Assembly: GCA_944381095.1 (NCBI GenBank)
Contig: CALWJW010000003.1
Span: 1-52,875 of the forward strand
Direction: 5' to 3'
Length of the DNA stretch: 52,875 nt
Origin: an uncultured Clostridia bacterium
GTDB taxonomy: Bacteria > Bacillota > Clostridia > Oscillospirales > CAG-272
The number at the start of each line of letters is the position of its first letter. Position 1 is the first letter of the stretch. Shown piece after piece: positions 27,797 to 50,480 of the stretch. The position numbers and the translations under genes are program-made. A model generated the notes under the pieces. It saw only the letters and a list, made by a program, of their open reading frames with translations. It had not been told where the DNA came from and did no database searches.

Positions 27797-27977
27797 TTAA
27801 GGCAACACCGCACAATTCTGACTGCGCAAATCTGCCGTCAGATTTTTCGTCAAACAAACCAAATTGACGCAGGCAATAGTGGATCTATTGACAAGGAGAT
27901 TTGTGCAGTTTGGCGAAAAAGATGCAAAAAGTTGTGCGGTCAAGGCGCGAGCCGTGAATTGCGCGGTGGTGCCTTAA
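27797..27977. mobile_element. 181-bp MITE-like element, copy 1
   Basis: Bounded by TTAA on both sides with imperfect terminal inverted repeats (GGCAACACCGCACAATT against GGCACCACCGCGCAATT when the right end is reversed, 15 of 17). The interior has further complementary segments (CGTCAA-N10-TTGACG; GCGCAAATCT with AGATTTGTGC). No transposase is encoded. It appears base-for-base identical to the copy at 49959-50139. TTAA could be the duplicated target or part of the ends. Confidence 0.88.
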
Positions 27978-28003
27978 ATTTAACACCGACTTTCCGACAT
28001 TCT

Positions 28004-28046
28004 TACGTCACTGTCACAAAAGTATAGCACTGTTTTTCTTTGAGAT
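28004..28046 (+). repeat. Imperfect direct repeat, right copy, flanking MITE copy 1
   Basis: Partner of 27748-27791 with the same CACAAAAG and ACTGTTTTTC blocks; the pair brackets the MITE. Confidence 0.6.
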
Positions 28047-28106
28047 ATCGTTATCAAAATTACTCATGACAGTGGACCGGAACAAGCAAGATCATCCAAA
28101 TAAATA

Positions 28107-28168
28107 CAGCCGTCTTTTAATGGGAATTACAGGCTTTTGACCATACCCATAAAGACGGCTGCTTTTTT
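28107..28168. terminator. Bidirectional terminator, phoR side
   Basis: Arms CAGCCGTCTTT and AAAGACGGCTG, extended by ATGGG / CCCAT, with a T6 tail on the plus strand and an AT-rich tail on the minus strand. It can end the pst-pho operon. Confidence 0.85.
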
Positions 28169-28224
28169 ACTTTGTTTTTATTTATTCACTAAAATAATGC
28201 CATATTCCAAAGCCGTTAAAACAG

Positions 28225-29904
28225 TTAAAAATCAGACTGTTCACCCGACTTTTCCCCGAAAATAACGGTTACTGTGGTTCCCTCACCTTCCTTGCTTTCC
28301 AATTTTACCACAGCTCCGGTTAACCTTGCCGCATGTTTTACTATTGACAGTCCGAGTCCGGTTCCCCCGATTTCCCTCGAACGGTTTTTATCCACCCGGT
28401 AAAATCTTTCAAAAACACGCTCAATGTCTTTTTCCGGAATGCCTATTCCGGTATCACTGACTTCAAGAATAGTTTTTTTCGCTTGGTTTTTAAGCTTGAC
28501 TATTACTCTGCCGTTTTCTTTGTTGTATTTGATAGCGTTATCACAAAGATTATATACTATATCAAAAATAAGCCTTCTGTTTCCGTGAACGAAGCGCTCC
28601 TCTCCGCTGACAACAAATTCTATGCCCTTTTCTTTTGCCGGACGCTCAAGAATCTTTTGTACTTCCTTTGAAACCTCAAATAAGTCAACAAGCTCAGAAT
28701 CATCTCCTTTACGGCCGTCGTCAAGCTCGGACAATTTAATTATGTCGTTCACAAGTGTTATCAGCCTCTGCGCCTCATCGTATATAACTGCCGAAAATTC
28801 TTTTACATCCTTCGCTCCGACAGTTCCGCTTTTCATGAGCTCGGCAAAACCGGATATAGAAGTCAGCGGCGTTTTCAGCTCATGCGAAACGTTCGCTGTA
28901 AACTCCCTTCTTAACTGTTCTCTTTCCTCTGTCTCGGTAACATCTATCAGTATTATTACCGCGCCTACGCTACCGGTGGATTCAGTTGAAGGACTTCCGA
29001 TAACTCGACATATTCCCTTTCCGGTCCTCATCAGTTCATCGCTCATTTCTCCCATAAGCGCTTTTTCTACCGCGTTTCTGAAAACTCCGCTTCTGTTGAG
29101 TGTGTAAACAGAAGAATTTTCAGTCGGTTCTTTGCTTTCAAGCAATGTGAGTGCCGCCGGATTATAAAATATGATTTTCTTATTGCTGTCGGCTATTATT
29201 ATGCCTTCCTCCATATTATCGGTTATCAGCGAAAACTCTTTTTCTTTTTGTTGTGCCTGTTCTATCTGATTTTTCAGTAATCTTTTCTGTTTACCGAGAT
29301 TATAAACCAACGGAGAAATTTCATCGTAAACGTCACTTGCCTCAGGGTTTTCGGGATCTATACAGTTTATCGGCTTTACAATACTGTCAGTTGCCCTGTG
29401 TGCCAGCAGCGCCGCCGCTATCACTGTAAGAATCGCCGTCGAAACCAATGGCGGCAAGCTTTCCTTTACCAGTTTATATACTATACTTTCGGTTACGGCA
29501 AGTCGCATTATATTGCCGTTTTCCATTAACTTTGCGTAATATATTGTCTTAATAGAAAGTGTGGGAGAAAGTCTTGTGCTGAATCCGTAACCTTTTTCAA
29601 GTGCCGACTTCACCTCTTCCCTTTCGAGATGATTCTCCATAGCTTCGCTGTCGGCACGGTTATCGTAGATTACCGTACCGTCCGTGGATATTACAGTTAT
29701 CCTTTTATTTACATCCTTAACGCCGTCCAGAAAAACTTTACCTTCCGTACCGTATCCGTATATCAGATAATCCGTCTCTGTCTGCATTTCCGTCATCAGC
29801 TGCTTTTCATATGCCCGTGTCATTATTCCGGACAGAAACAGCATTGTCACCGCGAGCACTGCAAACGACACAAGACATATTGCGCGGAATATCTTTCTGC
29901 TCAT
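28225..29904 (-). CDS. phoR: Phosphate-regulon sensor histidine kinase
   Basis: 559 residues. Membrane segments lie at about 8-28 and 150-170 with a sensor domain of about 120 residues outside the cell. A PAS domain (about 220-325) precedes the dimerisation helix with phospho-acceptor His341 (NVSHELKTPL), then the ATPase domain: N box NLCDNAIKYN, G1 DTGIGIP, F box ERFYRVDK and G2 GGTGLGLSIV. It phosphorylates the response regulator encoded just upstream when phosphate is limiting. The start at 29904 has GGAAGGTGG ahead of it; an ATG at 29931 overlapping the phoP stop is the alternative. Last gene of the pst-pho operon. Confidence 0.92.
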   Translation of the reverse strand: MSRKIFRAICLVSFAVLAVTMLFLSGIMTRAYEKQLMTEMQTETDYLIYGYGTEGKVFLDGVKDVNKRITVISTDGTVIYDNRADSEAMENHLEREEVKSALEKGYGFSTRLSPTLSIKTIYYAKLMENGNIMRLAVTESIVYKLVKESLPPLVSTAILTVIAAALLAHRATDSIVKPINCIDPENPEASDVYDEISPLVYNLGKQKRLLKNQIEQAQQKEKEFSLITDNMEEGIIIADSNKKIIFYNPAALTLLESKEPTENSSVYTLNRSGVFRNAVEKALMGEMSDELMRTGKGICRVIGSPSTESTGSVGAVIILIDVTETEEREQLRREFTANVSHELKTPLTSISGFAELMKSGTVGAKDVKEFSAVIYDEAQRLITLVNDIIKLSELDDGRKGDDSELVDLFEVSKEVQKILERPAKEKGIEFVVSGEERFVHGNRRLIFDIVYNLCDNAIKYNKENGRVIVKLKNQAKKTILEVSDTGIGIPEKDIERVFERFYRVDKNRSREIGGTGLGLSIVKHAARLTGAVVKLESKEGEGTTVTVIFGEKSGEQSDF

Positions 29905-29927
29905 AATTTCCACCTTCCGTATACCGG

Positions 29928-30614
29928 TCATTTTTTCAGTTTGTATCCGATTCCTTTTACCGTCTCAATAATCTTTTCTTCATTGCCGTCCTCTCCGAGC
30001 TTTGCTCTGAGCTTTCTTATATGTACATCTACTGTACGACTTTCACCGTCAAAACTGTATCCCCATACGTTTTCAAGAAGCCAGTCTCTGGTACACACTC
30101 TGCCGTCCGCTTTTACTATCGCCAGCAAAAGCTCAAACTCTTTAAGGGAAAGACTTATCTCCTTACCGTCCACAGCCACCGTATGCTCCGGCACCGATAT
30201 TTTGAGTCGATTTATGATGTAAACTTCTTTTTCCGATTTTTCTTCCGGACCGCCGACCCGTCTCTGCAACGCTTTTACTCTTGCAATCAGCTCCATCATG
30301 CCGAAAGGCTTTGTGATATAATCATCTGCTCCGCTGTCCAGACCGTAAACCTTGTCATACTCCGAAGCTTTTGCCGTTATCATTATAACCGGTATTTTCG
30401 TCGTTCTCCGATCTTTTCTGAGTTTACCCAGTATCTGCAATCCGTCTTCTTCCGGTAACATTATATCAAGAAGTATCATATCCGGAAGCTGTTCCCGCAT
30501 TTTTTCCCAGAACTCCGACGGTTTCTCAAAACCTGTTGCTTCAATCCCGTTATTATTCAGTGCATAACTCACCAGTTTTCTGATGTTGATATCGTCTTCC
30601 ACAAAGTATATCAT
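29928..30614 (-). CDS. phoP: OmpR-family phosphate response regulator
   Basis: 228 residues. The receiver domain has the acidic pocket (VEDD), phospho-acceptor Asp50 (LLDIMLP) and Lys in TKPFG; the C-terminal winged helix (about 130-228) has LSLKEFELL and RTVDVHIRKLR. It binds TTAACA-type Pho boxes when phosphorylated; such boxes precede pstS. It lies between phoU and phoR on the same strand. Confidence 0.94.
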   Translation of the reverse strand: MIYFVEDDINIRKLVSYALNNNGIEATGFEKPSEFWEKMREQLPDMILLDIMLPEEDGLQILGKLRKDRRTTKIPVIMITAKASEYDKVYGLDSGADDYITKPFGMMELIARVKALQRRVGGPEEKSEKEVYIINRLKISVPEHTVAVDGKEISLSLKEFELLLAIVKADGRVCTRDWLLENVWGYSFDGESRTVDVHIRKLRAKLGEDGNEEKIIETVKGIGYKLKK

Positions 30615-30632
30615 TTGCTCACAGCTCCTATA

Positions 30633-31292
30633 TCATTTGTGCGGCTCTTCGTCTGTAACGTGAATTCCCGTTATTGAGTATTCAACCCATTCAGCTATAT
30701 TCACTGCATGATCGGCTATCCTTTCAAGATATTTCGCTATCATAAGAAGGTCAAGGCAAACATTGGCGCTTTCGGGACTTTCACTTATTACTCCGGTCAG
30801 CTCTTGCTTTACTTTCAAAAACAACCCGTCCACCACATCGTCATGTGCTATAACTTCTTTTACCGTCTGCATATCCTTACGCACAAAAGAATCCACACTG
30901 TCCTTGACCATTCTGACGGCATGCTCAGCCATTTCCCCTATGTGAACTTTTGCAAGCAGGTTGTTTTCCTTTACATACTGCGATATTTCCGCTATATCCG
31001 CCGCCTGATCGCCGATCCTTTCCATATCTGAGATCATCCGCAATGCGGCAGAGATTGTACGAAGGTCTTTTGCAACCGGCTGCTGCTGAAGCAACAACCT
31101 CATCGACTTACCCTCTATTTCACGCTCTTTTTCATCAATTTGTCGGTCGGTTTCAAAAACTTTCTGCACCTGAGCTTCGTCATGTTCAAGAAGTGCTTTT
31201 GACGAACAGTATATAGCTTCCTCACAAAGTGCTCCCATGGTTATCAGATCGCTGCTCAGCATTTCAAGCTGGCTGTCAAAATTTTTTCTCAT
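30633..31292 (-). CDS. phoU: Phosphate transport system regulator PhoU
   Basis: 219 residues made of two PhoU three-helix repeats; the ExxxD-type metal motifs are seen around DMERIGDQAADIAE and LERIADHAVNIAE. It couples the Pst transporter to PhoR signalling. The ATG at 31292 is chosen because GGAGGGG precedes it; an in-frame TTG at 31310 would overlap pstB. It starts 10 bases after pstB. Confidence 0.95.
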   Translation of the reverse strand: MRKNFDSQLEMLSSDLITMGALCEEAIYCSSKALLEHDEAQVQKVFETDRQIDEKEREIEGKSMRLLLQQQPVAKDLRTISAALRMISDMERIGDQAADIAEISQYVKENNLLAKVHIGEMAEHAVRMVKDSVDSFVRKDMQTVKEVIAHDDVVDGLFLKVKQELTGVISESPESANVCLDLLMIAKYLERIADHAVNIAEWVEYSITGIHVTDEEPHK

Positions 31293-31302
31293 AGCCCCTC
31301 CG

Positions 31303-32052
31303 TCACCCAAATCTTCCGGTTATATAATCTTCAGTCCGTTTGTCTTCCGGCGTATTGAACATTTTCTCGGTATCACTGTATTCGATAACCTCTCCAAGCA
31401 GGAAAAACGCTGTTCTGTCAGCTATTCTCAATGCCTGTTGCATATTATGCGTCACTATTATTATAGTGTATTTTTCCTTTAAGTCAAGTGTTAAATCCTC
31501 AATTTTTGACGTTGATATCGGGTCAAGCGCCGATGTCGGTTCGTCCATAAGCAAAACCTCCGGTTCAACTGCCAGCGCCCTGGCTATACACAACCTTTGT
31601 TGCTGTCCTCCCGAAAGACCCAAAGCGCTTTTTTTCAGTCTGTCCTTTACTTCATCCCAGATAGCCGCATTCCTGAGTGATCTTTCCACTATCTCGTCCA
31701 GCTTAACTTTTGATCGTATACCGTGAGTTCTCGGACCGAATGCTATATTATCATAAATACTCATTGGAAACGGATTTGGCTTCTGAAACACCATTCCGAC
31801 TCTCTTTCTCAGATGCCCGGTATCCATATCACCGTATATATCTTCTCCGTCGAGCATTACCTTGCCTTCTATTCTGCATCCCTGAACCAGGTCGTTCATT
31901 CTGTTCAGAGTTTTCAGAAGTGTTGACTTTCCGCATCCGGACGGTCCTATAAAAGCCGTTATCTGCTCAGACGGTATCGAAAGGCTGACGTTTTTCAGAG
32001 CTTTAAACTCTCCGTAATAAAGATTCAAATTTTCAATTCTGAATTTTTCCAT
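31303..32052 (-). CDS. pstB: Phosphate ABC transporter ATP-binding protein
   Basis: 249 residues. Walker A is GPSGCGKST (36-44), the ABC signature LSGGQQQRL, Walker B VLLMDEP and the H-loop VTHNM. It powers phosphate import through PstC-PstA. The ATG at 32052 has GGAGGGG upstream; a TTG nine codons earlier lacks this. Confidence 0.97.
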
Positions 32053-32162
32053 GGCTCCCCTCCGTCGCTGATTACTCAATTGTTCCGACTTTGTTTAACG
32101 AAAATAAATTAAGTTACGTTTGTTTTTGTTTTAATGATTTGCGACAAGCGCTTCGTACAGTT

Positions 32163-33044
32163 TCAGCTTTTCAGTTTTTTTGCTATCCTCGAACTGAAAA
32201 AGTTCAGCAGAAGAACAAAACCGAGTATCACTACCGCCGTTGCATAAGCCTCTTTTATATGCAAGCCTTCGTTCATGAGAACGTAAAGATGAACTGAAAG
32301 CGTCCTGCCGGAACCCATAACGTTTTTCGGTATGTTTGTGGCCGTTCCGGAGGTATAAATCAGCGCTGCCGTCTCGCCTATTATTCTTCCCATACTCAGA
32401 ACTACGCCGGCAAATATCCCGTTGACAGCAGACGGCAGAACTATTTTAAACACAGTGCGCAGTCTTCCCGCACCGAGTCCGAAAGCACCCTCTCTGTACG
32501 AATCCGGAACAGCCAGAAGCGCTTCCTCGGTCGTCCTTATCATGACCGGCAGTATCATTATTGAGAGCGTAAGTGCTCCTCCGAGTAACGAATAATCAAA
32601 ACGCAGCGCAAGATTGAAAAAGAGGTAACCGAACAGTCCGTATACAATTGAAGGTATTCCTGACAGCGTTTCAGCCGTAATCCTGATAATTTTTACCAGC
32701 TTGTTTCCCTTTGAAGCATATTCTACAAGATATATTGCTGTAAAAATACCAATCGGAACGGCAAGTCCGAGCGACATCGCCGTCATTATCAGAGTATTGA
32801 ATATTGCAGGGAGCATTGAGACATTTTCCTCGGTATACACCGGAGAAAACAAAGAGGGTTTCAGGTTTGGTATTCCTTTTGCAAGAATATACACTATGAG
32901 TACTATTACCGATAAAAGTGTTATCGCCATGCATATATATACCGCCGACATCACGGCAAATGAAACCTTGTGTTTACGGTAATTGCTCAGTTTTTGCCTG
33001 AAACTAACGTAATTTACACCTCTGCTTTGAGCATTACCTTTCAT
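32163..33044 (-). CDS. pstA: Phosphate ABC transporter permease PstA
   Basis: 293 residues with six membrane segments and a longer N-terminal cytoplasmic tail. The EAA loop (EALLAVPDSYREGAFGLGAGRLRTVFKIVLP region) that contacts PstB is present. It overlaps pstC by 11 bases and has GGAGGTG 6 bases before the ATG. A 110-base gap separates it from pstB without a clear terminator. Confidence 0.96.
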   Translation of the reverse strand: MKGNAQSRGVNYVSFRQKLSNYRKHKVSFAVMSAVYICMAITLLSVIVLIVYILAKGIPNLKPSLFSPVYTEENVSMLPAIFNTLIMTAMSLGLAVPIGIFTAIYLVEYASKGNKLVKIIRITAETLSGIPSIVYGLFGYLFFNLALRFDYSLLGGALTLSIMILPVMIRTTEEALLAVPDSYREGAFGLGAGRLRTVFKIVLPSAVNGIFAGVVLSMGRIIGETAALIYTSGTATNIPKNVMGSGRTLSVHLYVLMNEGLHIKEAYATAVVILGFVLLLNFFSSRIAKKLKS

Positions 33045-33945
33045 TTACGGCACCTCCGTTTCCGGCATTACGTTCGGTTTTCTTTTTTCTGCTCTCACGT
33101 GACGTCCCGCTTTTTACCGCCGAAAAACACAGATTTATTATAAGAATAAACACGAAAAGCACTGCTGCCGTCGCTATTAAAGCTTCTCTGTGCAGATCCT
33201 GAGCGTATCCCATTTCCATTACTATGTGTGCTGTCATTGTTCTCACGCCGGATAAAATACTTTCCGGTATCACTGTCTGATTTCCGGCTATAAGTATAAC
33301 AGCCATTGTCTCTCCAATCGCTCTTCCGACTCCCAGAATAACTCCTGCGAGAATTCCTGACCTGGCTGCCGGTATGACCGCCTTGAATATGCTTCTTTCG
33401 TGCGTCGCACCCAGTGCAAGCGCACCCTCGTAATAGCTACCGGGTACGCTTCTGAGTGCAGATTCGCTTATGTTTATTACAGTGGGCAGTATCATCATCC
33501 CGAGCATTAAAGACGCTGTAAGCACTCCCTTGCCGCTGGTTCCGAAAATTTTCTGAATAACCGGCACTATTACCACAAGTCCGAAAAATCCGTACACGAC
33601 TGAGGGTATTCCTGCAAGAAGCTCAATTGCCGATTTCAGCGGACGGTATAGCACCGCCGGACAGTAAAATGCCATAAATACCGCACTCATCAGACCTATC
33701 GGTACTCCCACAGTTATTGCTCCTGCCGTTACATATATACTCCCTACTATCATCGGGAGTATCCCGTATAATCCCAGATCCGGATCCCATATTTTGCCGA
33801 ATAAGAAATTGATTATTCCTATTTCACCTATCGCCGGAATACTGTTTGAAAATATGAAAAAGCATATCAGCAGAACCGCCGCAATACTGACTGTCGCCGT
33901 CAGCATAAAAACGTATCTCATCAGCTTTTCTTTTACCGCTGTCAT
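33034..33945 (-). CDS. pstC: Phosphate ABC transporter permease PstC
   Basis: 303 residues with six membrane segments. The family region VYGFFGLVVIVP and the EAA loop (SALRSVPGSYYEGALALGAT) are present. With PstA it forms the phosphate channel. GGAGAGG precedes the ATG. The C-terminal tail is unusually basic (SRESRKKKTERN). Confidence 0.96.
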   Translation of the reverse strand: MTAVKEKLMRYVFMLTATVSIAAVLLICFFIFSNSIPAIGEIGIINFLFGKIWDPDLGLYGILPMIVGSIYVTAGAITVGVPIGLMSAVFMAFYCPAVLYRPLKSAIELLAGIPSVVYGFFGLVVIVPVIQKIFGTSGKGVLTASLMLGMMILPTVINISESALRSVPGSYYEGALALGATHERSIFKAVIPAARSGILAGVILGVGRAIGETMAVILIAGNQTVIPESILSGVRTMTAHIVMEMGYAQDLHREALIATAAVLFVFILIINLCFSAVKSGTSRESRKKKTERNAGNGGAVNER

Positions 33946-34019
33946 CGCTTCCCTCTCCTGTACGCAAAAGGACGACGGCTCACTTTTCAGATTGCCGTAA
34001 CGTCCCGTTCCTTTTCATG

Positions 34020-34883
34020 TCATCCGTTAACTTCCGACCACTCTTTGCTTTCGCCGATGTAAATTTTAGTTATCTGTTCAAGAGTCAGATCGGAACATTC
34101 GTTCTCCTTGTTTACTATCACTGCGATTCCGTCTTTTGCTATCGTCAGACCTGTCAGTCCGCCGTCAATCTCACTCTGCTTGATTTCTCTGGAAGCCATT
34201 CCGATCGTTCCGGGCTTTTCGGTAGCTTCATTCATTCCGGTAGTTGAATCGCTTGTCTGAATGTCAACTGTTACATTCGGATTCAATGCTATATAAGCCT
34301 CTCTCAGTTTTCCCATTACCGGTGAAACAGAGGACGATCCGGCTATTTTTACTGTTCCGCTGATATTTGAGGAAGTATAAGCGGCAGCGTCGTCTTTTAC
34401 CTTGATATAGCCTTCTTTTTCTATTATACTCTGTCCGTTTGAGCTCATTATAAAGTTCACAAAGTCCTGCGTTGCCTGATCAAGTTCACCTTTGTACGCT
34501 ATATTGAACGGTCTTGAAAGTTTATAGGTTCCGTTTTTTACATTTTCGACCGTCGCCTCCACTCCGTTTACTTTGACTGCTTTCACAGTGTCGTTAAGTG
34601 AACCGAGAGAGATGTAACCTACCGCATTTTTTGTGTTGCTTACGCTGGTAATTACAGCTGCGGTACTGCTCTGCGTTTCCGCCTGCGCCATTGTCCTGTC
34701 GACTTTTGTTCCTTCTTCGTTTTTCGCTTCTATTCCGGTTATTTCTATGAATGCACTTCTTGTTCCGGAACCCTTTTCCCTTGTTATTACCGTTATGCCG
34801 CTCATTTCTCCGGCACATCCGCAGAATAACATCACTGCCGTTACAATTGTCATAATAGTTGCCAAAATCTTCTTTTTCATCAT
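34020..34883 (-). CDS. pstS: Phosphate-binding lipoprotein PstS, circularly permuted
   Basis: 287 residues. A hydrophobic signal ends in a lipobox-like LFCGC, so it is a membrane-anchored lipoprotein. The order of the two halves is swapped relative to classical PstS: the phosphate-binding ITREKGSGTRSAF segment, normally in the C-terminal half, comes directly after the signal, and the normal N-terminal half (VKIAGSSSVSPV, QTSDSTTG, GMASREIK, AKDGIAVIV, LTLEQITKIY) follows, ending at EWSEVNG, which classically joins onto ITRE. All ligand motifs are kept, so phosphate binding should be intact. Similar permuted proteins appear to exist in other Clostridia. AAGGAG precedes the ATG; first gene of the operon. 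Confidence 0.93.
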   Translation of the reverse strand: MMKKKILATIMTIVTAVMLFCGCAGEMSGITVITREKGSGTRSAFIEITGIEAKNEEGTKVDRTMAQAETQSSTAAVITSVSNTKNAVGYISLGSLNDTVKAVKVNGVEATVENVKNGTYKLSRPFNIAYKGELDQATQDFVNFIMSSNGQSIIEKEGYIKVKDDAAAYTSSNISGTVKIAGSSSVSPVMGKLREAYIALNPNVTVDIQTSDSTTGMNEATEKPGTIGMASREIKQSEIDGGLTGLTIAKDGIAVIVNKENECSDLTLEQITKIYIGESKEWSEVNG

Positions 34884-40096: not shown

Positions 40097-40100
40097 TACA

Positions 40101-41333: not shown

Positions 41334-43976
41334 ATGAAGTTTTACGCAATGGAAAAAGAGGCCGTGTTCGATTCGGTAAAGTCTTCAAAAAACGGACTTA
41401 CTTCCGAAGAAGCAGAAGCACGGCTTGCAGCCAACGGGAAAAACAAACTGGTAGAAGGCAAGAAAAAATCTATATTCCGCAAATTTCTTGAACAGCTTGC
41501 CGATCCCATGATAATTGTTCTTATCGCCGCCGCGGCTGTCTCTTTAATTACATCAATCATCGCAAAAGAATCTCCCGCTGATGTTTTCATCATCCTCTTT
41601 GTTGTGGTTCTCAATGCCGTACTCGGTGTTATCCAAGAGAGTAAGGCAGAAGAAGCCATAGCTGCGCTGAGTGAAATGACGGCGGCTCAAAGTAAAGTTC
41701 TCAGAAACGGTGTGATAACACACATCAAGAGTGAGGACCTTGTGGTCGGCGACGTGATTATCCTCGAAGCAGGGGATGCAGTGCCCGCTGACGCGAGAAT
41801 AATTGAATGCGCATCAATGAAAGTTGAAGAAGCCGCACTTACAGGCGAGTCGGTACCGGTTACAAAAGAAGACAAACTGTTTTCAGACGCCGACGAAGTG
41901 TCGCTCGGCGACAGAAAAAATATGGTTTATATGGGCAGCACCGTCGTTTACGGACGCGGAATCGCCGTTATCTGCGCCTGCGGGATGGACACTGAAATGG
42001 GAAAAATCGCCTCCGCTCTTTCGCAGGCGGCTGACGAAGCCACTCCCTTGCAGATCAAACTCGGTCAGCTCAGCAAAATACTCACTTACCTGGTTCTCGG
42101 TATCTGCGTATTTATCTTCGCTGTCGGCGTGCTGAAAGCAGGTGAGATCAATCCTGACGTTCTCCTCAGCACCTTTATGCTCGCAATATCACTTGCGGTA
42201 GCTGCTATTCCGGAAGGTCTTGCCGCCGTCGTGACTATTGTTCTCTCGATAGGCGTCACAAAAATGTCGAAAAGAAATGCCGTCATAAGAAAACTGACGG
42301 CAGTCGAAACTCTGGGATGTACTCAGATAATCTGTTCTGACAAAACAGGCACCCTGACTCAGAACAAAATGACAGTCGTTGATTACAGCTCCGCAGACAA
42401 AAATCTCATTTCGATAGGTATGGCGCTCTGTACCGACGCCGAAGTGGATAGCGACGGAAATGTTGTCGGAGAACCGACTGAAGCTGCACTGGTACAGTTT
42501 GCCTATGCAAATGATCTTCCGAAATTCGCGCTTAAAGAAAAATACCCGAGAGTCGGCGAAGCACCGTTTGATTCCATGAGAAAAATGATGTCTACCGTAC
42601 ACAAAACCGATTTCGGATTCAGACAGTTCACCAAAGGCGCACCTGATGAAATACTGAAAAAGTGCAAATATTATCTCTCGGAAACCGGCGTTCGGCCTCT
42701 GACCGGAACAGATATCGACTTTGTTCTGGAAACCAATAAAAAAATGGCTGACAAGGCTTTGCGCGTACTTGCATGCGCCTACCGCGACTACAAGACAGAA
42801 CCTTCCGAATACTCTCCGGAATCACTTGAACATGACCTTGTCTTCGTAGGAATAATGGGAATGATCGACCCTGTTCGTCCCGAAGTAAAGGACGCAATAA
42901 AGCAGTGCCATGAGGCAGGAATACGTGCCGTAATGATCACCGGTGACCATAAGGATACCGCTGTGGCAATTGCTTATGAACTCGGAATAATTTCCGACGC
43001 TTCGGAAGCCATTACCGGTGCAGACCTCAACCGTATGAGCGATGAAGATCTCTCAAAAAATATAGAAAAATATTCGGTATATGCCAGAGTACAGCCTGAA
43101 CACAAGGTAAGGATAGTAAAAGCATGGAAATCCCTCGGGAAAATTGTCGCTATGACCGGAGACGGAGTTAACGACGCCCCGAGTATAAAAAGCGCCGACA
43201 TAGGAGTCGGTATGGGCATCACCGGAACTGACGTTACTAAAAACGTAGCCGACATGATACTTGGTGACGACAACTTTGCGACAATAGTTTCCGCAGTTGA
43301 GGAAGGCAGAAAAATATACTCAAACATCCGTAAAGCCATACAGTTCCTGCTGTCCTCAAATCTCAGCGAAGTCGTTGCCATATTCTTTGCGACAATGATG
43401 GGATTTACCATACTCAAACCCGCTCACATTCTATGGATAAATCTTATCACCGACAGTCTGCCCGCTCTTGCTCTCGGTATGGAAGAAAACGAGAAGGACG
43501 CAATGAAAAAACCGCCGCGTAACTCAAAAGAAGGAATTTTCGCCGGCGGAGTCGCTTTCGATATATTTTATCAAGGTTTTATCGTTGCTGTCGTAACGCT
43601 TGCCGCCTACCTGATAGGACACTGGATGGAAGCCGGTAAATTTGAATTCACGGAAAGCGCCGACGGCATCACCATGGCTTTTCTTACCCTTTCGATGGCC
43701 GAAATATTCCAGTCGTTCAATATGCGTTCAAGACGAAATTCAATTTTCACAATGGGTGAACAGAATAAATGGCTCTGGGGAGCCGGCGCGCTGGCATTGC
43801 TGTTGACCACTGCGGTTATTTATATTCCTCCTTTCCCCACTCTGTTCGAATTTAAGCATATAAATACCGCCGAATACTTTACCGCTCTCGGTCTGGCTTT
43901 CACGGTAATACCGATTGTTGAGATCGTAAAGTTTTTCCAGAGACTGTACGCAAAGAAAAAATCTGCAAATAAATAA
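41334..43976 (+). CDS. P2-type calcium-transporting ATPase
   Basis: 880 residues. The N-terminal actuator domain carries TGES, the fourth membrane segment the ion-site AAIPEGLAA, the phosphorylation site is Asp336 (CSDKTGTLTQNK), and the hinge motif is TGDGVNDAPS. The C-terminal bundle ends in four hydrophobic segments and a basic tail. PEGL together with the NLITD segment points to the SERCA/PMCA-like Ca2+ pumps of bacteria. It probably exports calcium from the cytoplasm; other divalent cations are possible. AGAAAGGT lies upstream of the ATG. Monocistronic. Confidence 0.93.
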   Translation: MKFYAMEKEAVFDSVKSSKNGLTSEEAEARLAANGKNKLVEGKKKSIFRKFLEQLADPMIIVLIAAAAVSLITSIIAKESPADVFIILFVVVLNAVLGVIQESKAEEAIAALSEMTAAQSKVLRNGVITHIKSEDLVVGDVIILEAGDAVPADARIIECASMKVEEAALTGESVPVTKEDKLFSDADEVSLGDRKNMVYMGSTVVYGRGIAVICACGMDTEMGKIASALSQAADEATPLQIKLGQLSKILTYLVLGICVFIFAVGVLKAGEINPDVLLSTFMLAISLAVAAIPEGLAAVVTIVLSIGVTKMSKRNAVIRKLTAVETLGCTQIICSDKTGTLTQNKMTVVDYSSADKNLISIGMALCTDAEVDSDGNVVGEPTEAALVQFAYANDLPKFALKEKYPRVGEAPFDSMRKMMSTVHKTDFGFRQFTKGAPDEILKKCKYYLSETGVRPLTGTDIDFVLETNKKMADKALRVLACAYRDYKTEPSEYSPESLEHDLVFVGIMGMIDPVRPEVKDAIKQCHEAGIRAVMITGDHKDTAVAIAYELGIISDASEAITGADLNRMSDEDLSKNIEKYSVYARVQPEHKVRIVKAWKSLGKIVAMTGDGVNDAPSIKSADIGVGMGITGTDVTKNVADMILGDDNFATIVSAVEEGRKIYSNIRKAIQFLLSSNLSEVVAIFFATMMGFTILKPAHILWINLITDSLPALALGMEENEKDAMKKPPRNSKEGIFAGGVAFDIFYQGFIVAVVTLAAYLIGHWMEAGKFEFTESADGITMAFLTLSMAEIFQSFNMRSRRNSIFTMGEQNKWLWGAGALALLLTTAVIYIPPFPTLFEFKHINTAEYFTALGLAFTVIPIVEIVKFFQRLYAKKKSANK

Positions 43977-44113
43977 TTTTCCTGATCGCGAAATTTTGTC
44001 TTTTCGATTTGTGATCACGGTAGTCCCTTCAGACACCGCCGTTTCCGGAGGGATTTACTAAATCATTTTAGCTTGACTCATGTTTATCTTTTAAATTACA
44101 CTCCCGGATACTG

Positions 44114-44137
44114 CTTTTCCGAAAAGGTTCTGCTGAC
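44114..44137 (+). repeat. 24-bp direct repeat, first copy
   Basis: Core TTTTCCGAAAAGGTTCTG, itself partly palindromic (CTTTTC / GAAAAG). Matches the copy at 44199 at 21 of 24 positions; the spacing is 85 bases. A possible operator pair upstream of the GH2 gene. Confidence 0.5.
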
Positions 44138-44198
44138 TATCCGTTTCAGCTTAGCTTTGCGCGCTTCTTCCATGTTTTTCACTGTTCTGAGGATATCA

Positions 44199-44222
44199 CC
44201 TTTCCGAAACGGTTCTGCCGAC
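44199..44222 (+). repeat. 24-bp direct repeat, second copy
   Basis: Core TTTCCGAAACGGTTCTG; partner of the copy at 44114. Confidence 0.5.
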
Positions 44223-44369
44223 AATTCTGATTTCGCGGGATAAAGCAGTATTTCAAAATTCAAAGCTTATTGGAATTTCAGTTTTTTCCATCCCCGAAAA
44301 GTTTATTTTTTTACCGCACGCTTTTCTTTCAAAAAGCGTGGCAACAACCAACCGAAAAGAGGTAATTTT

Positions 44370-46118
44370 ATGGAAACTGCTATACCGAGAAACGAGCATC
44401 CGCGTCCGGATAAAAAACGTTCTGACTGGCTTTGCCTCAACGGAATCTGGGATTTTGAAATTGATAACGCAAAAACCGGAATCTATAAAAATTATCCGGC
44501 AAGAGATTCTCTGTCAGGTAAAATTCTTGTTCCCTTCTGTCCCGAAAGCGTTCTTTCCGGCGTTGGGGAAACTGACTTCATTAACGCCGTCTGGTACAGA
44601 CGTAATTTTGATATCCCGCAAAGTATGAAAGGTAAAAACATACTCTTGCATATAGACGCTTGCGACTACCGTACCGAGGTCTTTATTAACGGCAAATCGG
44701 TCGGACGTCATTCCGGAGGATACACTCCCTTTGAATTTGACATAACCGATTTTATTTTACCTGACAATAACTACATAACAGTTTACGCCGAAGATGACCT
44801 CAGAAACGAATGTCAGGTGAGCGGGAAACAGTCACGGGTTTTAAACTCACAGGGCTGTTACTATACCAGAACAACCGGCATATGGCAGACCGTCTGGCTT
44901 GAAGCTGTACCCAAGCACCACATTGTCAGCTATAAGGCTTATCCCAACGTCAGCCAGTCTTCTGTAACTCTGATTACAGCAGTATCTCCGGAATCGGCGG
45001 GAGCCGAACTTAATATTGTCGCTGAATACAACGGAACGGCGGTCGGCAGCGCTTGCTGCAAAATAAATTCCTGTCAGACAACACTTACACTCTGTCTGAG
45101 TGAAAAACATTTGTGGAATCCGGGTGACGGACATTTATATACACTAAAATTCACTTTGACAAAAGACAACGTAGCAGACTGCCTTGAAGGATATTTCGGA
45201 CTCAGAGAGGTCGCTCTCACAGGAAAAGGACTTCAAATCAACGGAAAAACCGTTTTCGGCAGATTTGTTCTCGATCAGGGGTTCTACCCCGACGGAATAT
45301 ACACCGCTCCTGATGATGCTGCCCTTATTTTCGATATTGAAGCCTCAATGCGGTGCGGTTTCAACGGCGCAAGACTCCACCAAAAGGTTTTTGAGCCGAG
45401 ATTCCTTTATCACGCCGACAGACTCGGATATATGGTATGGGCTGAAACCGGAAACTGGGGTCTCGACCATACAAGACCTATCAACGTTTATAATTTTCTG
45501 CCTGAGTGGATTGAGGAAATCGAGCGTGATTTTTCTCACCCGAGCGTTATAGGTTGGTGTCCGTTCAATGAGACCTGGGACATAGACGGCAGACGGCAGA
45601 GCAATGAGTTTATCGATCTTGTTTATTCTGTGACAAAACTCGCCGATAAGACCCGTCCTGTCATTGCCGACAGCGGCTCTTTTCCTGTATTTCGCAGCGA
45701 TGCTCATGATGTCCATGATTATGAGCAGGATCCCGCTGAATTAAGAGAAAATTATGCCGGTATTGACTCCGGTGTGATACGTGATCAGATTTACCGGACT
45801 CACCCGGGTCGTCAGAAATATGACGGGAAGCTTCCGGTTTTTGTCAGCGAATACGGCGGTATAAAATGGGTCTGCGACAAAAGCGATACTGCGTGGGGAT
45901 ACGGCAAAGACGTTGCTTCGGAAGCTGAATTTTTTGAACGACTCAAAGGCCTTACCGACGTTTTTCTGTCAAATCCGCACATTTTCGGCTATTGTTATAC
46001 TCAGCTTTACGACGTAGAGCAGGAACAGAACGGTCTGCTCACTTACAACCGGAAATTCAAATTTTCTCCCGAAAAATACCGTGAAATTTTTTCCGCAAAG
46101 TCCGTTATTGAAAAATAA
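44370..46118 (+). CDS. Glycoside hydrolase family 2 enzyme
   Basis: 582 residues, no signal peptide, so it acts on imported oligosaccharides. Domains run jelly-roll (about 15-185, with the GIWQTVWLE end), a short immunoglobulin-like domain (about 190-280) and the TIM barrel. The acid/base is Glu401 (PFNETWD) and the nucleophile Glu494 (VSEYGG). The FVLDQGFYPDG segment replaces the usual K-G-x-N/W substrate motif, so beta-galactosidase, glucuronidase or another activity cannot be separated. It lacks the C-terminal domains of LacZ. AGAGG precedes the ATG. Confidence 0.88.
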   Translation: METAIPRNEHPRPDKKRSDWLCLNGIWDFEIDNAKTGIYKNYPARDSLSGKILVPFCPESVLSGVGETDFINAVWYRRNFDIPQSMKGKNILLHIDACDYRTEVFINGKSVGRHSGGYTPFEFDITDFILPDNNYITVYAEDDLRNECQVSGKQSRVLNSQGCYYTRTTGIWQTVWLEAVPKHHIVSYKAYPNVSQSSVTLITAVSPESAGAELNIVAEYNGTAVGSACCKINSCQTTLTLCLSEKHLWNPGDGHLYTLKFTLTKDNVADCLEGYFGLREVALTGKGLQINGKTVFGRFVLDQGFYPDGIYTAPDDAALIFDIEASMRCGFNGARLHQKVFEPRFLYHADRLGYMVWAETGNWGLDHTRPINVYNFLPEWIEEIERDFSHPSVIGWCPFNETWDIDGRRQSNEFIDLVYSVTKLADKTRPVIADSGSFPVFRSDAHDVHDYEQDPAELRENYAGIDSGVIRDQIYRTHPGRQKYDGKLPVFVSEYGGIKWVCDKSDTAWGYGKDVASEAEFFERLKGLTDVFLSNPHIFGYCYTQLYDVEQEQNGLLTYNRKFKFSPEKYREIFSAKSVIEK

Positions 46119-46521
46119 GGCGGACATTTGGTTAAAATTTTCGCTTTAAACAATTCCGACCGGTTTGTATAATCTTTAAAATTTTTTCATTCTGATCAGA
46201 CGAAACTTAATCGGGGAGTTTTATTCTTCATATACCAAAATCCGCATCCCCCTTGAAAACCGTTTCCGCGTTGAATGCTTGCTATATATGGTATCAAGCC
46301 GGACAAAGAATTTTACGGCATGATATCACATTTTGCTTTTCCGGGAAAAACGTACGACGGTCGTAAGATTGTTTTTCCGCAGTATATTGAAAAACGCAGC
46401 CTTGTTTACCGGCTGCGTTTTTTTATTTCCGATCAGATTTTCCACACAAAATCATATTTACGGAAAATCTTTTTTACATTTTTTCTGACTTTTACGAAAA
46501 ACTGTCATACGGCACTTTTCT
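46119..46521. other. 403-bp non-coding region between convergent genes
   Basis: Holds the hairpin at 46392-46424; no supported gene or other signal. Confidence 0.65.
46392..46424. terminator. Bidirectional terminator
   Basis: Perfect arms AAACGCAGCC / GGCTGCGTTT with a 9-base loop, a T run on the right and an A run on the left, between the convergent GH2 and FAD-oxidoreductase genes. Confidence 0.9.
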
Positions 46522-47796
46522 CTACACAAGAAGTTCTTGAATTTCCGAAACTTTTACTTCTCTCGGCTCAATGCTGTGCTTCACAGCAAGGGCTGCCGCA
46601 GCTCCACCGGCTTCACCTATTGCTACACAAATAGGCATCGCCCTGAAATTTGAATGAGCCATATGGGTACCCGAAATATTTCTTCCGGACAACAATAGTC
46701 CGTCCGTCTTTTCCGGCACCAGACAGCCGTACGGTATAGTATATCCTTTTTTTTGCCGGAAATTTTTCTGTGAACCTGTTTCATCCAATCCCGAGCCTGT
46801 CAGATTATGGACATCAAAATTAAAATATGCGTCCCTTACGACCCAGTCACTGAAAAACCTTGCTTCGTATATGTCATTTTCTGTTATGCTTTTAACTCCC
46901 TTGAAGTGTCTCGTTTCCCTTATGCCTATCAGCGAGCCCGCACCGGTAATATAACAATTTTCATAACCCGGGGCATATTCTCTCAAAAATTCCACTATCG
47001 GCTGCATCTGACTTCTGCAAACCGTTTCTGCCTTTGTAAGATCTTCCGCTTTCGTTCCGTCAATATCAACGCAATTGGTCATATTACATGTAACGGTACC
47101 TGGTATAGTTGATCTGTATAACAATACATGCCCCGCGGGATATGGGAGATGCTTGCGTGCCAAAGCCTGCAACTCTCCTTTGGCAGTTTCCACTTCCGTT
47201 TCAAATGAGCCGGGAAAGACCGCCCTTTCGGTATCCACGCCACCCACTTTAAACATCAGTGTCGCAGGTTGCATTTTACCGTCTTCTTCCCTGCCTTTGA
47301 AATATTCCGCACCGGCGTAAAAACCTACGTCGCCGTCTCCGCTGCAATCAATTACTGCTTTTGCGGCATATGCGTTTCTCCCGCTTTTGCTTTCGGTAAT
47401 AACTCCTGTAACCCTATTGCCGTCCATCATCACATCGCATACGAATGTATAGAGCAAAAGTTGCGTTCCTGCTTTCTCCAACATTTCATAGTAAGTATTT
47501 TTCAGCATTTCAGGATCGATTGTAACCCTGCTTGCGTAACCTTTAAACACGTTTTTTTCTTCGGCATTTTTCAGTATTCTTTCGTACATCAGACTCTTTA
47601 CACTTCCTGTAAAGTGACTCATCATGCCGCTTGTCGATATTCCCCCTACGCTTCCGCTCTGTTCGATCAGAAGTGTTGAGCAGCCGCATTCAGACGCCTT
47701 TAATGCTGCCGCTATTCCTGACGGACCTGATCCGACAACTATGACATCATAAGTTCCTTTTATATCTGTTTTTCTCTCTTTTTCCGTATAGAACAA
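46522..47796 (-). CDS. FAD-dependent oxidoreductase
   Basis: 424 residues. The Rossmann FAD site is DVIVVGSGPSGIAAA near the N-terminus with the ribose-binding Glu in LLIEQSG; the segment AKAVIDCSGDGDVGFYAG and the C-terminal LLLSGRNISGTHMAHSNFR belong to the FAD_oxidored (PF12831-type) family, often found in glycan catabolic clusters. The reaction is unknown. Start: TTG at 47796 with AAGGGGTG 6 bases upstream is preferred over a GTG at 47805 that lies within that ribosome site. It is divergent from the AraC/PocR-type gene, which probably regulates it. Confidence 0.87.
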   Translation of the reverse strand: MFYTEKERKTDIKGTYDVIVVGSGPSGIAAALKASECGCSTLLIEQSGSVGGISTSGMMSHFTGSVKSLMYERILKNAEEKNVFKGYASRVTIDPEMLKNTYYEMLEKAGTQLLLYTFVCDVMMDGNRVTGVITESKSGRNAYAAKAVIDCSGDGDVGFYAGAEYFKGREEDGKMQPATLMFKVGGVDTERAVFPGSFETEVETAKGELQALARKHLPYPAGHVLLYRSTIPGTVTCNMTNCVDIDGTKAEDLTKAETVCRSQMQPIVEFLREYAPGYENCYITGAGSLIGIRETRHFKGVKSITENDIYEARFFSDWVVRDAYFNFDVHNLTGSGLDETGSQKNFRQKKGYTIPYGCLVPEKTDGLLLSGRNISGTHMAHSNFRAMPICVAIGEAGGAAAALAVKHSIEPREVKVSEIQELLV

Positions 47797-47815
47797 TATT
47801 CTCACCCCTTTCGAC

Positions 47816-47844
47816 TTGACTTCTCACCTGAACCTGATTATAAT
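47816..47844 (+). promoter_or_regulatory. Sigma-A promoter of the PocR/AraC regulator
   Basis: TTGACT (47816-47821), 17-base spacer and TATAAT (47839-47844), about 90 bases before the start. Confidence 0.83.
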
Positions 47845-47933
47845 GGATATCAGAACAAAATACAACAGTTTTTTTACCATTATTTTATGTTTTCGTGCAA
47901 TTCCGCAAAAAATATGCAAAGGAGCTGCCTGAT

Positions 47934-48767
47934 ATGGTAATTTCAGAAAGCGATATTTCTTCATACCTTGAATTTCTGATAAAAGAACGACACCTGTACG
48001 TAAGTCTTCACGGCGCCATTTCAAAATTTTCCTCACTTACACGGTATAATTTTCACATGCACCCGTACTGTCGCTTCGTTAAAACGGTTTGCTCCGGATG
48101 GAACGAATGTATTCGCAGACAGAAAAAAGTTATCGATGCCTGCTCAAAAGGAGAATTTTTCGGGACCTGCTACGCAGGTGTCAGTGAATTTGTTTACCCC
48201 CTTAATTGCAGAAATGAGGTTTTTGGTTTTATATCCGTCAGCGAATTCAAAAGCAATGATCAGACATCAGTTATCAAAAGAAATTCGTTTGCCGCAAGGT
48301 TTGCTGCGGGAAACGGAGACATACATTCTCAGTCAGAGCTTCTTGACCTCCCACCTGACAAGCAACAGATTGACGCGGTAATCAGACCGTTGGTTCTGAT
48401 GTGCGAAGTTTTCTACGAAAACAACCTTTCTGATCTGCCATACTCAAACACCGGAATGTCTTCTGTAATCCAGTATGTAAATGAATTTCATACATCTGAT
48501 CTGACTGTTGCAACCATTTCCGAGCACTTTAAAATGAGCGCTTCTTCAATCAGTCATAAATTCAAAAAAATAACCGGATACAGTCTTGCCGATTACATAA
48601 AAAATCTCAGAATAAACGATGCTATGTGGCTTTTGACCCGAACAGAAAAATCAGCTACGGAAATCGCCGCTTTGCTCGGTTTTTGCAGCAGCGCCTATTT
48701 TTCAGGTGTTTTCAAAAAAATCACCGGATTGACTCCTTCCGATTTCAGAAAACATTGCGCAAAATAA
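47934..48767 (+). CDS. AraC-family regulator with a PocR-type sensor domain
   Basis: 277 residues. The N-terminal half (about 5-165) has PocR-domain cysteines (CRFVKTVCSGWNEC, GTCYAGVSEFVYP), likely a ligand or redox sensor. The C-terminal half (about 175-275) has two AraC helix-turn-helices (TVATISEHFKMSASSISHKF and SATEIAALLGFCSSAYFSGVF). AAAGGAG lies 9 bases before the ATG. It is divergent from the FAD oxidoreductase and probably activates it. Confidence 0.9.
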   Translation: MVISESDISSYLEFLIKERHLYVSLHGAISKFSSLTRYNFHMHPYCRFVKTVCSGWNECIRRQKKVIDACSKGEFFGTCYAGVSEFVYPLNCRNEVFGFISVSEFKSNDQTSVIKRNSFAARFAAGNGDIHSQSELLDLPPDKQQIDAVIRPLVLMCEVFYENNLSDLPYSNTGMSSVIQYVNEFHTSDLTVATISEHFKMSASSISHKFKKITGYSLADYIKNLRINDAMWLLTRTEKSATEIAALLGFCSSAYFSGVFKKITGLTPSDFRKHCAK

Positions 48768-48984
48768 TCAGTATACCATTCGTCGCTTCATCACCATATA
48801 ATTGTTTAACCCAGCTTAATAACAGATATAAATTGCTATTATATTCTTTTCGCGGAGATAATTGTAAAAAATAAGTCTGATAATTGCAAGGCTGATTTAA
48901 GATATTGTAATTTAAAGTAACTATTTTTGTCTTTCATAATCATATTCTGACACATGTTCATTGTAGTTAAATATTCTCCCGTAA

Positions 48985-49872
48985 TCAGCACTTTGAGATT
49001 TTTCTGTACTCAGTCGGCGTAACTCCGTATACTCTTCTGAAAAGCCGGTTAAAACAAGATATCTGGCCAAATCCGGAATCAAGAGAAACACGAAGCACAG
49101 GTAGATTTGTCCTTCTCAGCGAATGCGCCGCAGCAGCCAGCTTCGTATTTATTATGAAATCCCTGACACTCATACCGGTCTCTTTTTTGAAAAGACTGCG
49201 TAGATGAGAACAACTGACTTCGCATTGATCGGCAATTTTTCTTTCTGCAAGCGATTCGCTGTCACTGAAATTTTCACTTATATAAAGGATAGCTTTTTCA
49301 GTTACACTGCGTCCGCCGCTCTGACTCAGACTTCTCGGTCCCTTGTCCTCGAAACGTCCCGTTTCCTTTACGATCAGCCCTACCAGAAGAGCGACTTCTA
49401 CTTCATCGTACGCTTCCTTTTTGCTCAGCAAGTATTTAAACCGTTCTATAAGCATTGCAAGATAATAATTTTCTCCTCTGCTGAAAATTCCGCTGTACCC
49501 GCTCACTTCTGAAATATTCAAAGAAAACGCTATATTCAGATTCTGTACCATCATCATTCTGACCGGTGAAAACGATATCCAGACCCACACGCTTTCACCG
49601 CAATTTTCATCAGAAGCGGAAAGATGTGCCACATATGGCGAAATATACTGTATATCTCCCTTTCTGTATCGGTAGATCCTGTCACCTATATACGTTACTC
49701 CACTGCCTGAAACACATATTCCTATTTCAGCTCCTTCGTGATAATGCAAAGCCTTTATTTTTCCGGGCGGCAGTATATAATTCAGTCCTATTGATGCGGA
49801 GCTTTCCCCGGAAAGTCCGAGATTTTTAAGATAAAAAACCGGCAAATGGTCTTTGTTTAAAATATATTCCAT
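48985..49872 (-). CDS. AraC-family regulator with an N-terminal cupin
   Basis: 295 residues. The N-terminal cupin (about 28-100) has HYHEGAEIGICVSG and KGDIQYISPYVAH; such domains bind sugars. The C-terminal AraC domain (about 190-295) has ERKIADQCEVSCSHLRSLFKK and the family end CFNRLFRRVYGVTPTEYRK. AGAGG precedes the ATG. The perfect palindrome GCGATATATCGC lies about 40 bases upstream and may be an operator. It probably controls nearby glycan genes; the direct target is unknown. Confidence 0.9.
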   Translation of the reverse strand: MEYILNKDHLPVFYLKNLGLSGESSASIGLNYILPPGKIKALHYHEGAEIGICVSGSGVTYIGDRIYRYRKGDIQYISPYVAHLSASDENCGESVWVWISFSPVRMMMVQNLNIAFSLNISEVSGYSGIFSRGENYYLAMLIERFKYLLSKKEAYDEVEVALLVGLIVKETGRFEDKGPRSLSQSGGRSVTEKAILYISENFSDSESLAERKIADQCEVSCSHLRSLFKKETGMSVRDFIINTKLAAAAHSLRRTNLPVLRVSLDSGFGQISCFNRLFRRVYGVTPTEYRKISKC

Positions 49873-50480
49873 ACAAAACCTCTGCTAACTGTTTTTCTGC
49901 CATGTTTGACTTAGCGATATATCGCCTGAAAAATTCAATGGCGTCAACTTTGGCTGATTTAAGGCAACACCGCACAATTCTGACTGCGCAAATCTGCCGT
50001 CAGATTTTTCGTCAAACAAACCAAATTGACGCAGGCAATAGTGGATCTATTGACAAGGAGATTTGTGCAGTTTGGCGAAAAAGATGCAAAAAGTTGTGCG
50101 GTCAAGGCGCGAGCCGTGAATTGCGCGGTGGTGCCTTAACTTTCAGTTTACTTTTAAACCAAATTTTTGGCTTAGTTTATTTTTCATTATTTACTGCACG
50201 ATATGATATTGCTGATACGTAATGAACATTTTCTGTGATACAAAACAGTAACCGATGCTGATTAAGAAATTTACCCCGGTCAGAAAATCCTTCTTACAGC
50301 TTTTTAAAGTCATTTATCCCGTTTAAAGACTGAATTTAAAAACAGAAACGTTTGTCTTGTTTTCAGCTACATTATACTTAAAATCAGCGAAAAAGTCAAG
50401 TTTGTTTGAAAAAGCGTAGATTATCGGTGCCGTAAATCTTAAAATATAAGCGTAATTCGTTAGTTTAGGAGGAAACAAAA
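49873..50480. other. 608-bp divergent intergenic region with a MITE
   Basis: Between the cupin-AraC and ADP-ribosylglycohydrolase genes. Contains the palindrome GCGATATATCGC near 49915, MITE copy 2 and the AGGAGG site of the next gene. No consensus promoter was found for either flanking gene. Confidence 0.7.
49959..50139. mobile_element. 181-bp MITE-like element, copy 2
   Basis: Same orientation, length and sequence as copy 1 at 27797-27977, again bounded by TTAA. Flanking bases differ from copy 1, which shows that the repeat ends at TTAA. One frame is open right through the element, giving a spurious 106-codon frame here. Confidence 0.88.

What the first reader, a model, noticed from the sequence alone, without database searches (positions are those of the whole stretch)
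27797..50139. Two apparently identical 181-bp MITE-like elements 22 kb apart
The sequence at 27797-27977 recurs at 49959-50139 with no difference seen by eye, while the flanking DNA is unrelated. Both copies are bounded by TTAA and have 17-bp imperfect terminal inverted repeats (15 of 17). Identity over 181 bases implies recent movement or a functional constraint. The interior contains nested complementary segments, so a transcript could fold into a long structure. No transposase is nearby, so it must be mobilised in trans, perhaps by a TTAA-targeting enzyme.
Basis: partly seen in the sequence, partly recalled or inferred. Interest (0 to 1): 0.72.

Follow-up and report, generated by a model that had tools for sequence, protein, structure and literature searches.

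The report
Small jumping element with RNA hairpin
The two identical 181-base repeats are copies of a tiny jumping DNA element that shares its ends with an IS5-type insertion sequence, and inside it is a hairpin whose shape appears to have been kept, on one strand, through deep divergence in gut Clostridia.

Summary
In detail: the two copies are identical over 181 bases, and the draft genome holds 20 complete copies, 16 identical. It is a MITE: 173 bp plus a 4-bp target duplication, mostly TTAA, but TTGA/TTGA in one own copy and TTTA, TTAC or TATA elsewhere. IS5-family elements of ~1.14 kb have the same ends, so an IS5-type transposase is the likely mover; none was found in this genome. Unexpected: the inside. 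Relatives down to ~60% identity fold end to end; in 24 aligned ones 32 of 66 pairs show compensatory change. The fold is favoured on one strand: 67 of 67 elements (4 of 71 dropped) fold better as + RNA, and G.U exceeds A.C 300 to 42, though the window-like sequences show no G.U excess. An ~86-nt core recurs inside elements with other ends, with one hybrid, and was found in 60 of 331 genomes of the class. Rfam gave no match. Function is inferred, not shown.

The parts
27797..27977 (+). MITE copy A including both 4-bp target duplications
   Evidence: Identical to copy B; 16 identical copies in the genome
49959..50139 (+). MITE copy B including both 4-bp target duplications
   Evidence: Identical to copy A
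27797..27800 (.). left target-site duplication TTAA, copy A (partner at 27974-27977)
   Evidence: 19 of 20 complete own-genome copies have TTAA/TTAA and 1 has TTGA/TTGA
27801..27817 (+). left terminal inverted repeat, copy A
27957..27973 (-). right terminal inverted repeat, copy A
   Evidence: 15 of 17 identical to the left end
49963..49979 (+). left terminal inverted repeat, copy B
50119..50135 (-). right terminal inverted repeat, copy B
27838..27924 (+). conserved hairpin core, copy A (model R2)
   Evidence: R2 match, 67.3 bits, E 8.8e-16
50000..50086 (+). conserved hairpin core, copy B (model R2)
   Evidence: R2 match, 67.3 bits, E 8.8e-16
27944..27953 (+). side mini-hairpin GGC-GCGA-GCC in the 3' arm, copy A
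   Evidence: Helix 5 of the consensus structure, 2 of 3 pairs with change on both sides; loop of the form GNNA in 21 of 24 sequences
50106..50115 (+). side mini-hairpin, copy B
   Evidence: As for copy A

Best explanation
It is a non-autonomous IS5-type transposon (MITE). Inferred mechanism of movement: an IS5-family transposase made elsewhere recognises the ends GGCAACACCGCACAATT, cuts out the 173-bp unit and inserts it at TTAA-like 4-bp targets, which are duplicated. The inside is not filler. It is a folded structure kept on one strand, most likely an RNA: a long hairpin with a conserved ~86-nt core and, in this end type, a GNNA side hairpin. Shown by computation: the ends match IS5-family elements; the 4-bp flanks behave as duplications; the hairpin covaries; the fold is favoured on one strand in the wider family; the same core sits inside elements with several different ends. 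Inferred: the folded transcript (or folded single strand) helps the element itself to propagate. Resident copies evolve almost neutrally and point either way relative to neighbour genes, so no sign was found of a local host function. Different transposon ends have been fitted to the same core over time.
For: Copies: 20 complete, 16 identical. TSD: 19 TTAA/TTAA and 1 TTGA/TTGA of 20. In a set found by RNA model, so not chosen for TTAA, these ends were recognised in 40 of 80 loci: 25 TTAA/TTAA, 4 identical and not TTAA (TTTA, TTAC, TATA twice), 11 unequal. Partner: L183 (1136 bp between TTAA/TTAA), L185 (CTAA/CTAA) and L190 (TTAG/TTAG, frame broken) share the ends; the intact L183 protein matches NCBIfam NF033581 at 312 bits, cut-off 140. 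Structure, 24 sequences: 92.3% of cells paired; 32 of 66 pairs with change on both sides (shuffles 17.3, slid 12-19); 136 such cells (shuffles 36.5, sd 4.8; slid 18-41). Strand: 67 of 67 elements in 24 clusters at 20% divergence fold better on +; G.U 300 against A.C 42 in a strand-symmetric count. Core across ends, 37 sequences: 157 both-side cells (shuffles 57.3, slid 26-60); a U.G pair in 35 of 37. Different ends on a similar core; A-type, B-type and hybrid ends in one genome bin.
Against: No transposase homologue was found in this genome and no clean empty site. The eight window-like sequences show no G.U excess in the strict count (three lean to A.C, window 2 against 4; five tie), only an energy difference of 5-11 kcal/mol. 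On pairs common to both strands' folds the excess is weaker (42 against 19) and absent in one cluster (12 against 13). Of 24 model hits printed, one (L363) folds slightly better on the other strand; of 47, one (L402) does so as a whole element. Core pairs with both-side change exceed shuffles only modestly (20 against 15.6, 1 of 500 shuffles reached it). No transcription data exist here; no promoter-like or terminator-like site was found inside copy A. Elements share ancestry, so counts are not independent events. Single-stranded DNA folding would leave much the same trace as RNA.
Confidence: 0.8

Rival explanations
1. The + strand RNA is kept because it makes insertions harmless: when read through by host transcription it folds away compactly, so hosts tolerate it. 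Selection acts on host cost and not on mobility.
For: Stable whole-length fold on +. Copies lie mostly between called ORFs, more often in convergent than divergent gaps (20 against 11 of 67 classified out of 82).
Against: Copies are not co-directional with their neighbours (++ 14, -- 22, crude ORF-based calls). Private single changes in resident copies break pairs almost as often as they keep them (26 against 31).
Confidence: 0.25
2. The fold is selected as single-stranded DNA of the top strand, for example at a replication- or transposition-coupled step, as attC sites or IS200/IS605 ends are (recalled analogies). G.T is tolerated where A.C is not.
For: Strand asymmetry and covariation fit any single-strand fold.
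Against: The ends, TSD and partner are those of an IS5-family DDE element, which has no known need of a single-stranded fold (recalled). Differences of up to 42 kcal/mol rest on G.U pairs, which stabilise RNA more than DNA (inference).
Confidence: 0.15
3. It is an ordinary foldback MITE: the hairpin comes from its inverted-duplication origin and is kept by arm-to-arm correction during replication, without function.
For: Long stem-loops are common to bacterial MITE families (Delihas review PMC2229807). Resident copies evolve nearly neutrally. The window-like sequences show no G.U excess.
Against: Arm correction should act on both strands alike and not give G.U over A.C in elements inserted in either orientation (300 against 42). 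The core is kept while ends and outer arms differ. A U.G wobble is kept in 35 of 37 cores.
Confidence: 0.12
4. A larger segmental duplication, or a piggyBac-like TTAA transposon.
For: Identical copies; TTAA at 19 of 20 own copies.
Against: Flanks are unrelated. Duplicated targets also include TTGA, TTTA, TTAC and TATA. The ends match IS5-family elements with an NF033581 transposase.
Confidence: 0.01

Closest known systems
ERIC/IRU and Correia/NEMIS elements (review PMC2229807: outline and parts 1-2 of 3 read)
   Same: Small non-autonomous repeats with inverted ends and long stem-loops in their transcripts. ERIC has an orientation-dependent RNA effect, and NEMIS RNA is proposed to be cut by RNase III.
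   Different: Other hosts and other ends. Here an IS5-family partner with matching ends is found, the fold is followed to ~60% identity with covariation in a subset, and one core sits in several end types.
RUP, BOX and SPRITE of pneumococcus (PMC3049150: abstract and passages by term search; RUP)
   Same: MITE-like, transcribed stem-loops; RUP and BOX ends resemble a resident IS (IS630-Spn1, ISSpn2). BOX is modular.
   Different: BOX grows by its own inner modules. Here the inner core is constant and the ends differ between elements. The IS families differ.
IS5-family insertion sequences, NCBIfam NF033581 (transpos_IS5_4)
   Same: Same terminal sequence and 4-bp duplications as the A-type elements.
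   Different: The MITE codes for no transposase and shares only the ends with them (by eye).
Rfam 15 families
   Same: None matched.
   Different: No match in the window at gathering score, none for copy A up to E = 5, and none to an element in 12 loci that hold relatives, where the only hit was a tmRNA.

Membership tests
Bacterial MITE | short (<~200-300 bp), no transposase gene | tested here: met
   173 bp, too short for a transposase. A 106-aa ORF (49902-50222) runs through copy B; it was not tested as a gene.
Bacterial MITE | terminal inverted repeats | tested here: met
   15 of 17
Bacterial MITE | target-site duplication | tested here: met
   TTGA/TTGA in one own copy; 4 identical non-TTAA pairs among 40
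Bacterial MITE | multiple dispersed copies | tested here: met
   20 complete copies
Bacterial MITE | precise empty site in a relative | tested here: inconclusive
   Closest congener ~77% identical; intergenic DNA not convincingly alignable; no empty site among held loci
IS5-type (NF033581) mobilisation | ends shared with an autonomous element of the family | tested here: met
IS5-type (NF033581) mobilisation | transposase present in the same genome | tested here: not met
   No match in the 91% complete own assembly; the same query matched 9 of 295 genomes of the family and 27 of 394 of the order
IS5-type (NF033581) mobilisation | transposase acts on these ends | not testable with these tools
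   needs a transposition assay
piggyBac-like TTAA transposon | strict TTAA target | tested here: not met
   TTGA, TTTA, TTAC, TATA duplications
Conserved structured RNA | covariation beyond shuffled and slid controls | tested here: met
   not a phylogeny-aware test
Conserved structured RNA | strand-specific fold | tested here: met
   Wider family. Not seen as a G.U excess in the window-like sequences nor in one cluster.
Conserved structured RNA | transcribed | not testable with these tools
   no RNA data held
Known Rfam family | match to a curated model | tested here: not met

The most novel reading that the evidence does not exclude
A class-wide selfish RNA module of Clostridia: a conserved one-strand hairpin RNA that has propagated by repeatedly acquiring the ends of different IS5-family transposons, so that the RNA is the lasting unit and the transposon ends are exchangeable. 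That would be a bacterial counterpart to SINE-like elements, with an RNA needed for its own spread.
Probability: 0.35. Interest if true: 0.87.

Novelty: new variant of a known kind. Interest (0 to 1): 0.7.

Why it matters
Bacterial MITEs are often treated as remnants of insertion sequences whose inside does not matter. Here the inside is the better kept part: a fold favoured on one strand, found across many genera, while the transposon ends differ. It gives a defined set of sequences, structure models and partner transposases with which to ask directly whether a non-coding RNA helps a bacterial transposon to spread. It also names a repeat with no match in the Rfam 15 searches made here, which will recur as unannotated repeats and contig breaks in gut metagenome assemblies.

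Tried and rejected
Rejected: segmental duplication (flanks unrelated); a piggyBac-like strict TTAA enzyme; a known Rfam RNA; derivation by simple internal deletion of the IS (only the ends are shared, by eye).

Led nowhere: empty sites in the genus (closest genome ~77% identical, intergenic DNA not convincingly alignable); empty sites among held loci (one search gave only nested or tandem MITE junctions; five G272 regions, showed a repeated flank but no empty copy). Phages and plasmids gave 2 and 4 relatives of ~70% identity; the exact end was not in viral contigs. Alignment A1 of 67 elements gave an RNAalifold structure of only 15 outer pairs; the consensus structure comes from the better-aligned subset A2. 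A test for co-direction with neighbour genes was negative (crude ORF-based gene calls; 67 of 82 copies classified). Literature searches listed no title describing this element; apart from the two papers cited, only listings were seen, and the library lacks most subscription journals.

Rows dropped: of 71 elements of 157-175 bp, L096 and L097 were dropped as nested or different elements, leaving 69, of which 67 fold better on +. L046 was then turned round because shared 8-mers said so, and L108 and L126 were dropped as uncertain in orientation, leaving 67 of 67. With the turn that one search gave L126 it would fold better on the other strand by 19.8 kcal/mol; the k-mer vote for L126 was mixed. 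A1 still held L096, L097, L108 and L126 and had L046 the wrong way round; A2 (24) and A4 (37) are chosen subsets, thinned for similarity and partly by eye. One search printed 21 of the 40 loci whose A-type ends were not recognised and 3 of the other 40. One search was given 48 loci and returned 54 matches; one search examined 47 of them. In one search, 5 of 7 fetched G117 copies were used. Searches scored only the best 9 or 13 candidates per genome, and their match lists were cut.
Full report
Observation. The two stretches are identical over 181 bases with unrelated flanks. The own genome (2.10 Mb, 144 contigs, 91% complete) has 25 matches: 16 identical and complete, 4 complete with one difference each, 5 cut by contig ends. 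The 17-bp end with up to 3 mismatches falls on these copies in 45 of 52 places; the other 7, each with 3 mismatches, form no close inverted pair, so no longer element with these ends was seen in the assembly. Copy A lies between convergent genes (an alpha/beta hydrolase and a histidine kinase). Copy B lies between divergent genes (an AraC-type regulator and an ADP-ribosylglycohydrolase).

Ends and target. All 20 complete copies have equal 4-mers on both sides: TTAA in 19 and TTGA in 1. So the 4-mer is best read as a duplicated target and not part of the element, which is 173 bp. In a set found by RNA model, and therefore not chosen for TTAA, these ends were recognised in 40 of 80 loci: 25 TTAA/TTAA, 4 equal but other than TTAA, 11 unequal. 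No clean empty site was found.

Mover. The exact 21-base end with TTAA occurs in at least 115 stretches of public genomes, with titles such as Ruminococcus, Oscillospiraceae and Clostridia bins, many from animal guts (the scan stopped at its limit). One element there, 1075 bp with its TTAAs, has the same ends and an interrupted IS5-type transposase (Pfam DDE_Tnp_1 and DUF772). Relatives with the same ends and equal flanks include L183 (TTAA, on a contig classed as viral) and L185 (CTAA), both with a full-length open frame, and L190 (TTAG) with a broken one; in L184, L188, L189 and L191 the ends are alike but the flanking 4-mers differ. The L183 protein is NF033581, IS5 family. The own assembly has no homologue, while the same query matched 9 of 295 genomes of the family and 27 of 394 of the order. 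The MITE is absent from the 6 other genomes of the genus (also by RNA model) but is 97-99% identical in two other genera, which speaks for recent horizontal arrival and a burst (inference).

The inside is a conserved fold. Distinct elements of 140-260 bp with these ends numbered 89 among the loci searched. Of the 71 of 157-175 bp, 69 were kept; oriented by sequence identity to the window copy, 67 of 69 fold better on the + strand, by 22.7 kcal/mol on average. After turning L046 by shared 8-mers and dropping L108 and L126 as uncertain, 67 of 67 do, in 24 clusters at 20% divergence. The reason is G.U pairing: in a count that treats both strands alike, G.U 300 against A.C 42; 58 elements lean to G.U, 4 the other way, 5 tie. 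Against this: the eight window-like sequences are three of those four and all five ties, and on pairs shared by both strands' folds the figures are 42 against 19, with no bias in one cluster (12 against 13).

Covariation. On 24 aligned elements the consensus has 66 pairs in five helices: a long stem, an apical hairpin and a side hairpin whose loop is GNNA in 21 of 24. 92.3% of cells are paired; 32 pairs show change on both sides (shuffles 17.3, slid 12-19); 136 cells do so (shuffles 36.5, sd 4.8; slid 18-41). On this structure G.U cells are 143, A.C 12, other mismatches 110. The structure was derived from these sequences read as + RNA, which favours the paired percentage and the G.U figure more than the both-side counts. 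A composition of G 3247, A 3107, T 2852, C 2374 does not look like simple C-to-T decay of one strand (inference).

The core outlives the ends. Model R1 found relatives in 42 of 290 genomes of the family, 23 of 71 genera. Of 80 hits fetched, 40 did not show the A-type ends; the 21 of these that were printed have other ends, such as GGCATCTCTAAA, GGGACCTCTAAATATTC or GGAAACGCTGATT, around a similar core. IS5-type elements with B-like ends (L141, L194, L195) and C-like ends (L146, L199) exist, not all with equal flanks. In one genome bin (Lapin-021 bin38) A-type ends, B-type ends and a B/A hybrid surround nearly the same core. On 37 cores across end types, 20 of 30 pairs show change on both sides (shuffles 15.6, reached by 1 of 500; slid 11-18), 157 cells do (shuffles 57.3; slid 26-60), one U.G pair is present in 35 of 37, and the apical helix is the weakest at 68.8% paired. 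Core model R2 matched 76 of 345 genomes of the order (48 of 162 genera) and 60 of 331 of the class (42 of 199 genera); the class is taken to be Clostridia from record titles. With the strand set by the model, 40 of 40, 23 of 24 (not L363), and 47 of 47 cores and 46 of 47 whole elements (not L402) fold better on that strand; these are not independent of the model. Rfam has no counterpart by the searches made.

What selection sees. Within nine genomes with 5-9 copies each, private single changes kept pairs 31 times and broke them 26 times; those that turned a Watson-Crick pair into G.U numbered 21 and into A.C 10. Shared changes kept 41 and broke 39, with 22 to G.U and 6 to A.C. So resident copies drift nearly freely, while the fold is kept over long spans. 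With no co-direction to neighbours (++ 14, -- 22, +- 20, -+ 11 of 67 classified) this points to selection on propagation more than on local host use. This is an inference from small counts and crude gene calls.

Known systems. Bacterial MITEs with long stem-loops, and RNA effects of ERIC and NEMIS, are established (review PMC2229807), as are pneumococcal BOX and RUP with IS-like ends (PMC3049150, passages). That IS5 elements favour YTAR-like targets is recalled. New here, as far as these searches show, are the family itself, its IS5 partner ends, the strand-specific covarying core and the exchange of ends.

Noticed in passing
window 27743-27790 and 27999-28046: A 48-nt direct repeat (77% identical) brackets MITE copy A on both sides, so the MITE may sit between two units of another repeat.
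   Followed up: partly
window 18685-18868: A tandem repeat of 77-bp units, 2.4 copies, in a gap between the longer ORFs.
   Followed up: no
L038, L083, L090, L109, L132: Minute elements of 41-43 bp that are little more than the two A-type ends back to back between TTAA.
   Followed up: no
L426-L430 (one genome, G272): MITE copies adjoin the palindrome GCCCTTCTTTCAAGAAGGGC or a variant of it between TTAA sites; one of them also follows a second MITE-like right end.
   Followed up: partly
L028, L067, L043 (Lapin-021 bin38): One genome bin holds A-type, B-type and hybrid-ended elements with nearly the same core.
   Followed up: yes
L183, L184: IS5-type elements with A-type ends lie on contigs classed as viral, a possible vehicle between genera.
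   Followed up: no
L068, L094, L096, L097 (CALXUY, E0_LS bin154): Longer relatives (184-236 bp) appear by eye to carry extra sequence within the arms.
   Followed up: no
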